Source of the DNA: a virus
Length of the DNA stretch: 38,112 nucleotides
IMG/VR virus record: IMGVR_UViG_3300008266_000313
Location: 1-38,112 of that record
Strand: one strand, 5' to 3'
Position numbers and translations under genes: made by a program. Positions 332 to 8,132 of the stretch are shown here, one piece after another. Positions within the stretch are counted from its first letter, which is position 1; each line of letters begins with the position of its first letter. The notes under the pieces were generated by a model. It saw nothing but the letters and a program-made list of their open reading frames with translations, was not told the origin of the DNA and made no database searches.

Positions 332-790
332 TTAGAATCGACCTTGAGCTTCATTCAAAGTTTCAGTCATAACTTGCTGAGCTGCGCGGATCTCATCCAC
401 ATTGTCATGCTTAACAAATGTATCTGCTGTATTAGCATCTTGACTATATACAGTTTTACGATAGATAGGATTACCATCTACAGTACAAATTACACCTGTA
501 TCACCAGCAATTTTAAGATCACGTGAAGGATCTTGCTCATTGAATGGAGTCAAAGACTCAATTACAACTACCTTACCTTGAACTACTTCACCTGCAGACC
601 AATCAAAGCCTTGCAAATCTTCTACTTTACCTGGGATCAAAGCACTTACTGTTTTCTTACGAGCCCAACCGCGGTCATCAACAAGCATACGAGATTGTTC
701 TACGCGGATAAACCCATACTCAGGATTGTTTTTTGATGTAACAATTACATTACCTGCTGCATCACCTGTTACTACTACTTGATTTTTCAT
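332..790 (-). CDS. Small abundant phage protein, function unknown
   Basis: This 152-residue protein starts MKNQVVVTGDAAGNVIVTSK and appears to be a beta-rich globular fold with no membrane segment. I have an unverified impression that proteins of this type (a segment like NNPEYGFIRVEQ, then DLKIAGDTGVIC) recur in crAss-like and related Bacteroidota phages. Its Arg codons are mostly CGT or CGC, whereas most neighbours use AGA; the major capsid gene has the same bias, so I infer high expression. Its own terminator at 284-315 makes it a possible single-gene unit. A DNA-binding or replication-support role is a guess only. Confidence 0.8.
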   Translation of the reverse strand: MKNQVVVTGDAAGNVIVTSKNNPEYGFIRVEQSRMLVDDRGWARKKTVSALIPGKVEDLQGFDWSAGEVVQGKVVVIESLTPFNEQDPSRDLKIAGDTGVICTVDGNPIYRKTVYSQDANTADTFVKHDNVDEIRAAQQVMTETLNEAQGRF

Positions 791-4792: not shown

Positions 4793-5230
4793 TTATTCTT
4801 CCACCTTAGCACCTAATCCAAACTCTGCAAGCAGGTTCTCTGCAAGCACCTTTTCAGCTTGGCGCAATACACCTTTGCTGATACCCTTAGCTTTGGTCAA
4901 GAGTTTTTCTTCCTTAGTAGGTTCAGGAATAATGTTACCCTTGGAACTAATGGTTACATTGAATGTACCTTCGCGCACCAAAGACCACGGATACCACAAA
5001 ACATTACCTGTTTCAGAGTCAACCAAAGTATCCCAACGCTTAGCATTTGCTGCGCGATATGCATCTAATGCTTCCGCGTGCTCTGCGTTGGTTTCATCAA
5101 ACTCGAGGATATACTTCGCAGATTTGATTACTTCACCGTTTGCATCAAGCAATGGGGGACGCTTACCGTTAGCATTTTCTTTGCCTGTGCGTGTGAATTC
5201 ATTCACGAATGTTGCTTTAATAGCTTTCAT
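4793..5230 (-). CDS. Small abundant phage protein, function unknown
   Basis: The protein has 145 residues (MKAIKATFVNEFTRTGKENA...). The N-terminal two thirds alternate strands and a helix (KYILEFDETNAEHAEALDAY), then VLWYPWSLVREGTFNVTISS, and the C-terminus is a Lys/Ala-rich helix. Essentially all Arg codons are CGT or CGC, unlike most neighbours, so I infer strong expression. It has a strong terminator and sits behind one of four repeated hairpin elements. From memory, proteins of this layout are frequent in the left arm of Bacteroidota phages; no function is established that I know of. Confidence 0.8.
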   Translation of the reverse strand: MKAIKATFVNEFTRTGKENANGKRPPLLDANGEVIKSAKYILEFDETNAEHAEALDAYRAANAKRWDTLVDSETGNVLWYPWSLVREGTFNVTISSKGNIIPEPTKEEKLLTKAKGISKGVLRQAEKVLAENLLAEFGLGAKVEE

Positions 5231-5287
5231 AAGTTGTTGGTTTTTAATTGTTTATAAATGATTAATTGATTTACACACATTAAATAA

Positions 5288-5306
5288 TGGGATGAAAAAA
5301 GTCCCC
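5288..5306 (-). promoter_or_regulatory. Repeated hairpin element, copy 1
   Basis: GGGA-(9 bases)-TCCC around the core TGGGATGAA (TTCATCCCA on the minus strand), in a context AATAATGGGATGAAAAAAG. It lies about 60 bases upstream of the ATG at 5230. Three further copies precede other minus-strand units at 5397, 5618 and 5871. Confidence 0.5.
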
Positions 5307-5310
5307 TTAT

Positions 5311-5390
5311 TAAAAAAAGAGAGAATGTGTTATCCTATCCTTATAATCCACTCAAGGAAAAGGCTTTGATAACACACTCTACTCAATATA
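5311..5390 (-). ncRNA. Candidate short RNA: long hairpin ending in a T run
   Basis: On the minus strand TGTGTTATC (5376-5368 side) pairs exactly with GATAACACA (5334-5326 side), extended outward by AGAG/CTCT with a small bulge, and TTTTTTTA follows. No start codon fits. A copy of the repeated hairpin element (5397-5414) lies just upstream, as it does before the genes, so this could be an independent RNA of about 70 bases. It could equally be only an elaborate terminator for the 5433-5591 gene. Confidence 0.35.
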
Positions 5391-5396
5391 AATAGT

Positions 5397-5414
5397 GGGA
5401 TGAAAAAAGTCTTT
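5397..5414 (-). promoter_or_regulatory. Repeated hairpin element, copy 2
   Basis: Core TAGTGGGATGAAAAAAGTC, nearly identical to copy 1 over about 20 bases. The pairing of the two arms is weaker here (GGGA with TCTT). It precedes the candidate short RNA rather than an open frame. Confidence 0.45.
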
Positions 5415-5420
5415 TTATTT

Positions 5421-5444
5421 AAAAAAAGGGGATTACTCCCTTTT
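5421..5444 (-). terminator. Hairpin terminator overlapping the stop of the 5433-5591 gene
   Basis: AAAAGGG at 5424-5430 pairs with CCCTTTT at 5438-5444; on the minus strand a T run follows. The stop codon at 5433-5435 lies in the loop. Confidence 0.55.
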
Positions 5445-5591
5445 ATATTTGCGGATCTTTATATCTGCAAACTCTGCTTGTAAGGTAAATACCTTATTTA
5501 CTTCAAGCATTATCAGTGCTATCTCAGCACTGGGTTTATCTGCAATTAATATCTCAATTGCAGATATAATATCTTTAAGTTCTTGATTCAT
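5433..5591 (-). CDS. Hypothetical small helical protein
   Basis: Product of 52 residues from ATG at 5591 to TAA at 5433, starting MNQELKDIISAIEILIADKP. It reads as two amphipathic helices with a Lys/Arg-rich end (IKIRKYKRE), compatible with a small dimeric or DNA-contacting protein, but no family is recognised. Its leader CTTAAAAACCAATACTATG follows the local pattern, and a copy of the hairpin element (5618-5632) is about 30 bases upstream. Confidence 0.65.
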   Translation of the reverse strand: MNQELKDIISAIEILIADKPSAEIALIMLEVNKVFTLQAEFADIKIRKYKRE

Positions 5592-5617
5592 AGTATTGGT
5601 TTTTAAGATTAAATAGT

Positions 5618-5632
5618 GGGATGAAATATCCC
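5618..5632 (-). promoter_or_regulatory. Repeated hairpin element, copy 3
   Basis: GGGAT-GAAAT-ATCCC around the common core TAGTGGGATGAAA. It lies about 27 bases upstream of the ATG at 5591. The right arm differs from copies 1 and 4 but still pairs with its own left arm, which suggests that the stem itself is conserved. Confidence 0.5.
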
Positions 5633-5663
5633 TTTATATATAAGGTATAAGCCAATTAAAAAA

Positions 5664-5692
5664 AAAGAACAGGGTTATTCACCCTGTTCTTT
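5664..5692 (-). terminator. Perfect 12-base terminator hairpin
   Basis: AAAGAACAGGGT at 5664-5675 and ACCCTGTTCTTT at 5681-5692 pair perfectly around a 5-base loop, and the minus strand continues with TTTTTAATTGG. It overlaps the stop codon (5675) of the upstream gene. Confidence 0.8.
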
Positions 5693-5848
5693 AAGTCTGC
5701 AAACAACAAACACAATATGTGTATTTGTTGTGTAGGTCTTGAATTTCTTCATAGTACCCGCAGTTAGCCACTGATTGATGCGTGTCTGCATCTTTGTAAG
5801 TTCTTTTGCATCAGTGGCTTCGATGCTGAACAAGTCAAATCTGTACAT
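5675..5848 (-). CDS. Hypothetical small protein
   Basis: This 57-residue protein from ATG at 5848 to TAA at 5675 begins MYRFDLFSIEATDAKELTKM and looks like a strand-helix-strand-strand fold (last strand THIVFVVCRL). It is the first gene of the leftward arm, next to the divergent gap, and so is likely transcribed from there. Leader CTCTAAAACCATAGCTATG; repeated hairpin element 23 bases upstream; own terminator overlapping the stop codon. Function unknown. Confidence 0.7.
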   Translation of the reverse strand: MYRFDLFSIEATDAKELTKMQTRINQWLTAGTMKKFKTYTTNTHIVFVVCRLKEQGE

Positions 5849-5870
5849 AGCTATGGTTTTAGAGATAAGC

Positions 5871-5890
5871 TATGGGATGAATAACCCATA
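5871..5890 (-). promoter_or_regulatory. Repeated hairpin element, copy 4
   Basis: TATGGG-ATGAATAA-CCCATA; the stem is longer than in the other copies and the core TGGGATGAA is kept. It lies 23 bases upstream of the ATG at 5848. Confidence 0.5.
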
Positions 5891-5960
5891 ACTTTTTCCC
5901 TGACAAAAAGAATGCTTTTGATTTATCCTGGTAAATATCAGCACTCTGTTCTGAATAGGT

Positions 5961-5970
5961 GGGGTACCCC
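5961..5970. repeat. Palindrome GGGGTACCCC
   Basis: A perfect 10-base palindrome in an otherwise AT-rich gap. It may be an operator half of the divergent region; no known regulator site is recognised. Confidence 0.5.
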
Positions 5971-6007
5971 TTGCCTTAGCTAAGTGGTGGGGGTGATTTG
6001 GTTATTA

Positions 6008-6159: not shown

Positions 6160-6167
6160 TATATTTG
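6160..6167 (+). promoter_or_regulatory. Candidate -7 promoter element (TATATTTG)
   Basis: TATATTTG matches TAnnTTTG and lies 16 bases before the ATG at 6184. The -33 element is not clear. It supports ATG 6184 as the start of the first rightward gene. Confidence 0.45.
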
Positions 6168-6705: not shown

Positions 6706-8132
6706 ATGGCAATAAGAATAAGAAGAGGTACTGATGCTCAGAGACTTACAGTTGTTCTCCAGGATGGAGAAATAGCTTGGACTACAGATACCCAGGAATT
6801 TTATGTAGGTGATGGAGTTACCCTGGGGGGAGTATTTATAGGTCCTAGTACTGGGGCTTTTGTACCTCTTACTAGGAACCTCACTATAAATGGTGTAACT
6901 TTTGACTTATCTGCAGATAGAACTTGGTCAGTAGGTACTGTTACTAGTGTTGGATTTACTGCAGGAACAGGAATATCTTTAGCTGGTACTAATCCTATTA
7001 TAGGATCAGGTACAGTTACAATAACCAACTCCGCACCTGATCAGACTGTGGTACTAACTGCAGGCACAGGTATTGGGGTAGCGGGAGCTTATCCAAACTT
7101 CACAATAAGTAATACAGATCCTACATCAGGAGTTACTTTAGCTTCTGCTGGGGGTACAGAAACTCTTGTAAATGATGGCACAGGTCCTGCTCTAGCAAAC
7201 AAAGGGTTGACTGCGGGTACAGGTATATCTTTATCAAGCACTGCTACTGATGTAACAGTTACCAATTCAGCACCTGACCAGGTAGTAGCTCTTACCGCAG
7301 GAACAGGAATAGGTATCACAGGTACATATCCTAACTTCACTATTACTAATAGTTCACCTTCTAGTGGTGGCACAGTTACTAGTCACCTGACCAGGTAGTA
7401 GCTCTTACCGCGGGAACAGGTATAGGTATCACAGGTGCATATCCTAACTTCACTATTACTAATAGCTCACCTTCTAGTGGTGGCACAGTTACTAGTGTAG
7501 GCTTAGCTCTTCCTACAGAGTTCGCTATTTCTGGATCTCCTGTAACAGGAGCAGGTACACTAACAGGATCTTGGAATGCTCAATCTGCTAACACAGTACT
7601 TTCAGGTCCTACATCTGGTGGTGCAGCAACTCCTACATTTAGAGCTCTTGTGTCAGGAGATATTCCTGATATATCAGCTACCTATCTTACTGTAGCTAAC
7701 GCAGCTCTTAACTATCAACCACTAGACTCAGACCTTACAACTATAGCAGGGTTAACTCCTGCTAATGATGATATTATTCAAAGAAAAGCAGGAGCTTGGA
7801 CAAATAGGACTATTGCTCAGTATTATGCAGATCTTCAACCTAGTGTAAAGGATGATGTATATTTTACATTCTTGTGCTTGTATGGAACAGCGGGAACTGG
7901 TGAGCTTGTTACATTTGCACTAAGAAACACAACTCAAAACACAACAACTACCATAGGCACAACCGCTGCAAATGGAGGAAGTGCAACAGTTGTTACAAAT
8001 GCAACAGTTACTGGACTCAACATTGCAATAGGTGCTTCTGACTTTTTTACTTTGAGGATAACTAATCCAGTTTGGGTGACTAATCCAGTAGGGGCAATTT
8101 ATCGTGTTTTATTAACCTTCAAACGAGCATAG
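6706..8132 (+). CDS. Tail-fibre or receptor-binding protein, frame broken by a duplication
   Basis: Residues 1-50 (RIRRGTDAQR...LQDGEIAWTTDTQEFYVGDG) match the N-terminal domain seen in phage tail fibres and tropism determinants. Glycine/threonine-rich repeats follow (LTAGTGIGV, LTAGTGISL, LTAGTGIGI). The first frame ends with TAG at 7396. A 113-base tandem repeat (7271-7383 and 7384-7496) shifts the frame: the second copy and everything to 8132 are open in another frame that continues the same repeat pattern and ends with a beta-rich tip domain. One missing base at 7383/7384 would restore a protein of about 475 residues. Real inactivation, programmed shift and assembly error are all possible. 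Confidence 0.75.
7271..7496 (+). repeat. 113-base tandem duplication inside the fibre gene
   Basis: Copy 1 at 7271-7383 and copy 2 at 7384-7496 differ at four positions by eye. In the shared protein frame three of the four differences are silent and one changes Thr to Ala. 113 is not a multiple of three, so the duplication as sequenced shifts the frame by one base. Confidence 0.9.

What the first reader, a model, noticed from the sequence alone, without database searches (positions are those of the whole stretch)
5288..5890. Hairpin element repeated four times upstream of leftward genes
The core TGGGATGAA (TTCATCCCA on the minus strand) occurs at 5289, 5397, 5618 and 5873. In three copies the flanking bases differ but still form a stem (GGGA/TCCC, GGGAT/ATCCC, TATGGG/CCCATA), i.e. 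covariation. Three copies lie 20-60 bases before a start codon. This suggests a phage-specific promoter or RNA operator; phages such as N4 use hairpin promoters for their own virion polymerase, and crAss-like phages carry a virion polymerase too.
Basis: partly seen in the sequence, partly recalled or inferred. Interest (0 to 1): 0.65.

Follow-up and report, generated by a model that had tools for sequence, protein, structure and literature searches.

The report
Early promoter array in crAss-like phage

Summary
The repeat is real. TTCATCCCA occurs four times, all on the minus strand, at 5288, 5396, 5617 and 5873, against 0.44 expected by chance. The full element is about 16 nt (TTCATCCCAYTATTTA). 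Three copies follow an intrinsic-terminator-like sequence. Three precede an ORF by 17, 18 and 50 nt. The copy at 5396 precedes a ~75-nt hairpin RNA with no ORF.

Relatives settle what it is. Most of 45 viral-contig loci with a homologue of the first gene carry a genome-specific version (e.g. ACAACTTTTATTG, AACATCTTATTAC, AAAGTCCTTAATG). Each has 7-16 copies on one strand, mostly after terminators and 14-40 nt before ATG. In five near-complete genomes nearly all copies lie in one 2.5-5 kb block.

The hairpin fails. It is strong in one copy, weak in two, absent in one, and absent from 146 copies in relatives.

Best reading: one promoter per gene for the phage's earliest genes, read by a phage-encoded polymerase, probably the giant virion RNA polymerase that relatives encode (5e-37 to phi14:2 RNAP 6VR4). 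No transcription start or polymerase contact is shown. I found no published crAss-like early promoter.

The parts
5866..5881 (-). Promoter-like element, copy A (TTCATCCCATAGCTTA), 17 nt before the ATG of ORF 5675-5848; the only copy with a strong local hairpin
5675..5848 (-). 57-aa early-gene candidate; homologues in 45 viral contigs, most with such an element upstream; predicted beta-alpha-beta-beta fold, no known family
5664..5692 (-). Intrinsic-terminator-like hairpin (12 bp) with T run, ending the first unit
5610..5625 (-). Promoter-like element, copy B (TTCATCCCACTATTTA), 18 nt before the ATG of ORF 5433-5591
5433..5591 (-). 52-aa ORF, second unit, no known family
5421..5444 (-). Weak terminator-like hairpin AAAAGGG...CCCTTTTTTT overlapping the stop codon of ORF 5433-5591 (energy not clearly better than shuffles)
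5389..5404 (-). Promoter-like element, copy C (TTCATCCCACTATTTA), not followed by an ATG ORF and without any hairpin of its own
5314..5388 (-). Predicted ~75-nt non-coding RNA closed by a long stem ending in a T run (-27.9 kcal/mol, z -5.5); probably also the terminator before copy D
   Evidence: no Rfam match in the window
5281..5296 (-). Promoter-like element, copy D (TTCATCCCATTATTTA), 50 nt before the ATG of ORF 4793-5230; orthologous copy TGCTTCCCATTGTTTA in the closest relative
4793..5230 (-). 145-aa ORF, last unit of the array; 70% identical homologue in the contig of L134/L264
4746..4776 (-). Intrinsic-terminator-like hairpin (13 bp) plus T run, ending the last unit
6160..6167 (+). Host-type -7 element TATATTTG 16 nt before the first rightward ORF (6184), i.e. 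a different promoter class on the other side of the divergent junction

Best explanation
The repeated element is a phage-specific DNA promoter, a single conserved block of about 13-16 bp. It drives, one unit at a time, the first genes of the leftward strand next to the divergent junction. Each unit is promoter, short leader, one tiny gene or a non-coding hairpin RNA, intrinsic terminator, then the next promoter. The sequence has diverged in step across all copies within each phage lineage, as expected if a fast-evolving phage-encoded polymerase reads it. The most likely reader is the giant two-barrel virion RNA polymerase of crAss-like phages, injected with the DNA. Shown here: the repeat, its clustering, strand bias, terminator and start-codon context, its lineage-specific versions, and the polymerase gene in relatives.
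For: Motif and clustering: four copies against 0.44 expected. In 17 related loci a genome-specific motif recurs 7-16 times on the gene strand with 0-5 hits on the other strand (0 in most loci), mostly after terminators and 14-40 nt before ATG. EM log-likelihoods reach 75-118 against roughly 33-46 for shuffles in the clear cases. In whole records the clustered hits are 10 of 11, 14 of 17, 13 of 15, 12 of 12 and 9 of 11, inside 2.5-5 kb of 114-126 kb genomes, with 0, 1, 0, 0 and 1 hits on the other strand. Promoter rather than RNA leader: some copies stand before non-coding hairpin RNAs; one ncRNA is strongly conserved in four genomes while the element in front of it differs between two pairs; information is confined to one block with nothing conserved 20-35 nt upstream. 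Reader: relatives with 66-75% terminase identity encode proteins of about 3,500-4,300 aa with DFDxD, and a three-sequence profile finds phi14:2 RNAP 6VR4 at 5e-37 and no other PDB chain. Literature: the crAss001 genes expressed at 0-10 min lie at the end of the leftward block, adjoining the rightward late genes (PMC8375218), as here; phi14:2 vRNAP drives rifampicin-resistant early transcription (review PMC10136315); crAss RNAPs evolve unusually fast (PMC7886860).
Against: No transcript 5' end is known for this phage or any relative. The window's own RNA polymerase gene lies outside the 38 kb contig. The experimentally studied crAss001 and phi14:2 show no such repeated array, so the link to their virion polymerase is by analogy. 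A strongly divergent set of promoters could also reflect a phage sigma-like factor acting on host polymerase. Several relatives (e.g. L214, L225, L250, L254) gave no motif clearly above shuffles.
Confidence: 0.62

Rival explanations
1. A promoter read by host RNA polymerase redirected by a phage-encoded sigma-like factor or activator, not by the virion polymerase.
For: Late transcription in crAss-like phages is thought to use host polymerase (PMC8375218, PMC10136315). Lineage-specific divergence only requires some phage-encoded recognition factor.
Against: The element is a single block with no second conserved box 20-35 nt upstream. It rarely coincides with the Bacteroidota -7 element TANNTTTG (2 of 109 motif-bearing genes). 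The first genes must be transcribed before a phage factor can be made, unless it is carried in the virion.
Confidence: 0.2
2. An RNA-level element in the 5' leader (ribosome recruitment, RNA processing, or binding site of an RNA-binding regulator) shared by these short messages.
For: Spacing to the start codon is narrow within many genomes (e.g. 16-19 or 24-28 nt).
Against: Copies stand before non-coding RNAs. The window's spacings are 17, 18 and 50 nt and none. One ncRNA keeps its sequence while the element in front of it differs. Copies follow terminators and have no folded structure.
Confidence: 0.1
3. An N4-type hairpin promoter, extruded as a cruciform and read by a T7-like virion polymerase.
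For: Copy 5873 has a 10-bp hairpin; copies 5617 and 5288 can form 4-5 bp stems.
Against: Copy 5396 has no stem. L138's five clustered copies and 146 copies in 12 relatives have none (mean z +0.14). Loops here are 5-9 nt. Relatives encode a two-barrel RNA polymerase.
Confidence: 0.03
4. Repeats left by duplication or recombination of a gene cassette, without a function of their own.
For: Copies at 5288 and 5396 share flanking sequence (34-47 nt repeats at about 81-85%), so some copies arose by duplication.
Against: Many lineages keep the block while the flanks diverge and the genes differ. The block occurs mainly between terminators and starts and on one strand.
Confidence: 0.05

Closest known systems
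Early (virion-polymerase) promoters of phiKZ-related phages, e.g. AR9 AAATATATATTAT-N6-G(+1) (PMC5312081)
   Same: One extended, conserved, AT-rich block repeated before early units; no -35/-10 pair; start site expected a few nt downstream.
   Different: AR9 has 41 early starts with one shared motif; here copies sit in one 2.5-5 kb cluster with a terminator between units, and the block differs between lineages. The polymerase class differs, and starts are unmapped here.
Virion-polymerase promoters of Thermus phage P23-45 (PMC10770324)
   Same: [quoted passage not shown] present in relatives that encode the polymerase and absent in those that do not.
   Different: P23-45 is a Thermus phage with the polymerase fused to its tape measure; its motif is shared among relatives rather than lineage-specific. 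It was mapped by ONT-cappable-seq and ChIP-seq, which is lacking here.
N4 early promoters (PMC4496689)
   Same: Phage-specific promoters of the first genes, read by an injected polymerase.
   Different: N4 promoters need a conserved inverted repeat forming a hairpin. That is not met here.
Early regions of crAss001 and phi14:2 (Crassvirales, Steigviridae)
   Same: Similar genome layout (crAss001: early genes beside the divergent junction on the replication strand); virion RNA polymerase.
   Different: No repeated promoter block is detectable in either genome with the same test.

Membership tests
N4-type hairpin promoter | Inverted repeat forming a stem-loop at every promoter | tested here: not met
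   absent in copy 5396, in L138's array and in 146 relatives' copies
N4-type hairpin promoter | T7-like virion RNA polymerase | tested here: inconclusive
   relatives encode the phi14:2-type polymerase; the window's own gene is outside the contig
Virion-polymerase early promoter of the AR9/P23-45 kind | Single conserved block repeated before early units | tested here: met
Virion-polymerase early promoter of the AR9/P23-45 kind | Transcription start a fixed short distance downstream | not testable with these tools
   no RNA data for this clade
Virion-polymerase early promoter of the AR9/P23-45 kind | Phage encodes a virion RNA polymerase | tested here: inconclusive
   met in relatives G002, G007 and G014; not visible in the 38 kb window; packaging in virions not testable
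Virion-polymerase early promoter of the AR9/P23-45 kind | Genes behind it are expressed first and independently of host polymerase | not testable with these tools
   only the position matches the crAss001 early block (PMC8375218)
Bacteroidota primary sigma promoter | -7 element TANNTTTG upstream of the gene | tested here: not met
   2 of 109 motif-bearing genes in relatives; none at the four window copies
Crassvirales (the phage itself) | crAss-type terminase, portal and capsid, and giant DFDxD RNA polymerase | tested here: met
   terminase 23-25% to crAss and Flavobacterium phages; PHROG terminase, portal and major head hits; polymerase seen in relatives only

The most novel reading that the evidence does not exclude
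A large uncultured, probably aquatic clade of crAss-like phages launches infection from a dense array of one-gene transcription units, each with its own virion-polymerase promoter and terminator, including several non-coding RNAs. The promoter sequence changes in concert across the array from lineage to lineage, giving a co-evolving polymerase-promoter code for the two-barrel virion RNA polymerases.
Probability: 0.5. Interest if true: 0.75.

Novelty: new variant of a known kind. Interest (0 to 1): 0.62.

Why it matters
I found no published promoter for the giant polymerase of crAss-like phages in the papers searched: the 2023 Crassvirales review and the 2021 genome survey do not use the word promoter, and two further literature searches found none; subscription papers, including the phi14:2 polymerase paper itself, were not held. 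The finding gives ready-made candidate sequences from dozens of lineages, in some cases with the polymerase gene in the same genome. That makes promoter recognition by this enzyme class directly testable and marks out the first genes and RNAs these phages probably make.

Tried and rejected
(1) Hairpin promoter or RNA operator: rejected on relatives. (2) Scanning the whole viral collection for the exact window motif: six isolated hits, apparently unrelated contigs, so the exact letters are specific to this lineage. (3) Nucleotide similarity of the region to known phages: none. The three proteins tested have no match in INPHARED, and the array proteins have no PHROG or Pfam family. (4) EM on the window alone finds the leader AAACC box, not the motif, because only three of ten upstream regions carry it. 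(5) Same test on crAss001 and phi14:2: no repeated block. (6) Structure of the 57-aa protein: confident small beta-alpha-beta-beta fold, no significant match. (7) Search for closer relatives through the 145-aa ORF: only the contig already known. (8) Rfam: no family for the ncRNAs at gathering threshold.

Full report
What was checked. TTCATCCCA (minus strand) occurs exactly four times, at 5288, 5396, 5617 and 5873; 0.44 are expected and no shuffle reached four. Aligned, the element is TTCATCCCAYTATTTA in three copies and TTCATCCCATAGCTTA in the fourth. It is not found elsewhere in the window. The record is a 38.1 kb linear virus contig, so most of the genome is missing.

Anatomy in the window. 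Reading leftward: copy 5873, 57-aa ORF (5848-5675), 12-bp terminator (5692-5664), copy 5617, 52-aa ORF (5591-5433), terminator-like hairpin overlapping its stop (5444-5421), copy 5396, a ~75-nt stem-loop RNA without an ATG ORF that ends in a T run (5388-5314; -27.9 kcal/mol, z -5.5), copy 5288, 145-aa ORF (5230-4793), 13-bp terminator (4776-4746). So each copy opens a short, separately terminated unit. One weak point is the 5444-5421 hairpin, which folds little better than shuffles.

What phage it is. PHROGs give portal, terminase and head proteins. The terminase is 23-25% identical to crAss and Flavobacterium phages and 66% or more identical to a large set of IMG/VR contigs. Several of these relatives carry giant proteins with the DFDxD polymerase motif. 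A profile of three of them finds PDB 6VR4, the phi14:2 RNA polymerase, at 5e-37 and nothing else.

The element in relatives. A homologue of the 57-aa protein was first seen in the 117-kb relative G014, sitting in an array of GCAACTTYTATT copies, each after a terminator and about 20 nt before an ATG. A search with the two proteins gave 45 loci. Upstream of the homologue, most show a recognisable block, often after a T run: ACAACTTTTATTA, GCAACTTCTATTG, AACATCTTATTAC, GAATCTTTAGTAA, CACTCTTTATAA, AAACTCCTTACTT, AAAGTCCTTAATG and others. The window's CATCCCATTA differs from L232's CATCTTATTA only by CC for TT. L138, whose conserved early-region protein (homologue of window 332-790) is 60% identical to the window's, has five clustered copies of TATTATTCCATCCT, the last before an ORF in the same position as the window's 145-aa ORF. 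The closest relative has the orthologous copy TGCTTCCCATTGTTTA before a 70% identical protein.

How specific is it. Within 17 related loci the genome's own block has 7-16 hits on the gene strand. Most are upstream of ATGs by 14-40 nt, most directly after a terminator. The opposite strand has none in most loci and 1-5 in the others, and reversed-motif controls give few or none, the A+T-rich L243 and L248 versions being the worst. In whole records the hits are confined to one block: G045 10 of 11 in 22.4-25.1 kb, G046 14 of 17 in 8.6-13.3 kb, G043 13 of 15 in 119.2-123.0 kb, G033 12 of 12 in 56.8-59.8 kb, and G014 9 of 11 in 97.6-100.1 kb. Loci are not all independent, since several contigs are near-identical. 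44 of 121 loci tested passed a repeated 9-mer test, but that tally includes some A/T-rich chance words, and many loci do not cover the array.

Why a promoter. Column information is confined to one block of about 13-15 nt, with a weak A-rich position 17-20 nt from its start and nothing 20-35 nt upstream. Copies without an ORF precede hairpin RNAs. Four genomes share an ncRNA that is strongly conserved, while the element in front of it is ACAGCT-type in two and TATTTATAAG-type in the other two. An RNA-leader function predicts neither. The narrow gap to the ATG in many genomes fits a short constant leader but does not by itself separate promoter from leader.

Why probably the virion polymerase. 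The cluster lies at the same place as the early block of crAss001, transcribed at 0-10 min (PMC8375218). phi14:2 virion polymerase drives rifampicin-resistant early transcription (PMC10136315). The polymerases are unusually fast-evolving (PMC7886860), which fits a block that is uniform within a genome and different between genomes. Two comparable systems, AR9 (PMC5312081) and P23-45 (PMC10770324), also use a single AT-rich block. In the window, rightward ORFs are instead preceded by TANNTTTG, the host-type -7 element (the consensus is from my own knowledge of Bacteroidota promoters), 14-29 nt before four ORFs (6160, 14688, 26326, 32777). This is weak support, since several matches would be expected by chance in 6.3 kb of A+T-rich non-coding DNA.

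Why not a hairpin. MFEs are -13.8, -6.2, 0 and -5.7 for the copies at 5873, 5617, 5396 and 5288, and only the first clearly beats shuffles. 146 copies in 12 related loci have mean z +0.14, with 1% below -2. L138's five clustered copies have 0 to -2.8 kcal/mol. A stem that contributes in this one lineage is possible but cannot be the general recognition feature. N4 promoters require it (PMC4496689).

Limits. No RNA data, no polymerase gene in the window itself, and no cultured relative with the array. Confidence: the element is real, about 0.97; it is a promoter, about 0.85; it is read by the virion polymerase, about 0.6.

Noticed in passing
L213 5461, L233 5607, L236 5391, L248 6261 (+ strand): A conserved ~95-nt non-coding RNA (..AATAGTGTATGAGTTAACTCCAATAACACAGATTATCTGAGCCAAGTAAGTTGATTGGC..) between an early-promoter element and a terminator; no Rfam hit in L233 or L248 at gathering threshold.
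   Followed up: partly
L216 5489, L226 8042, L229 8834, L239 7136, L244 9548: The last promoter-like copy of several arrays precedes a second conserved non-coding stretch; most share CGGTCA words and several share TGCATACT and a CCCGG box. Function unknown, possibly another RNA or a replication or regulatory site.
   Followed up: no
window 5960-5985 (minus strand) and junctions of G012, G014, G022: The divergent junction carries a GGGGTACCCC-like palindrome that recurs in the junctions of relatives.
   Followed up: no
window 3180-2560 (minus strand); L134 2120-4560 and 13648-13943: tRNA-like 3' halves separated by long inserts, with no tRNA called by ARAGORN or Rfam in the window. The relative L134 has a GIY-YIG-like ORF in its corresponding region and a group I intron elsewhere, suggesting intron-interrupted tRNA genes.
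   Followed up: partly
window 6934-7504: Degenerate 113-nt and 42-nt direct repeats in a rightward ORF region, tail-fibre-like.
   Followed up: no
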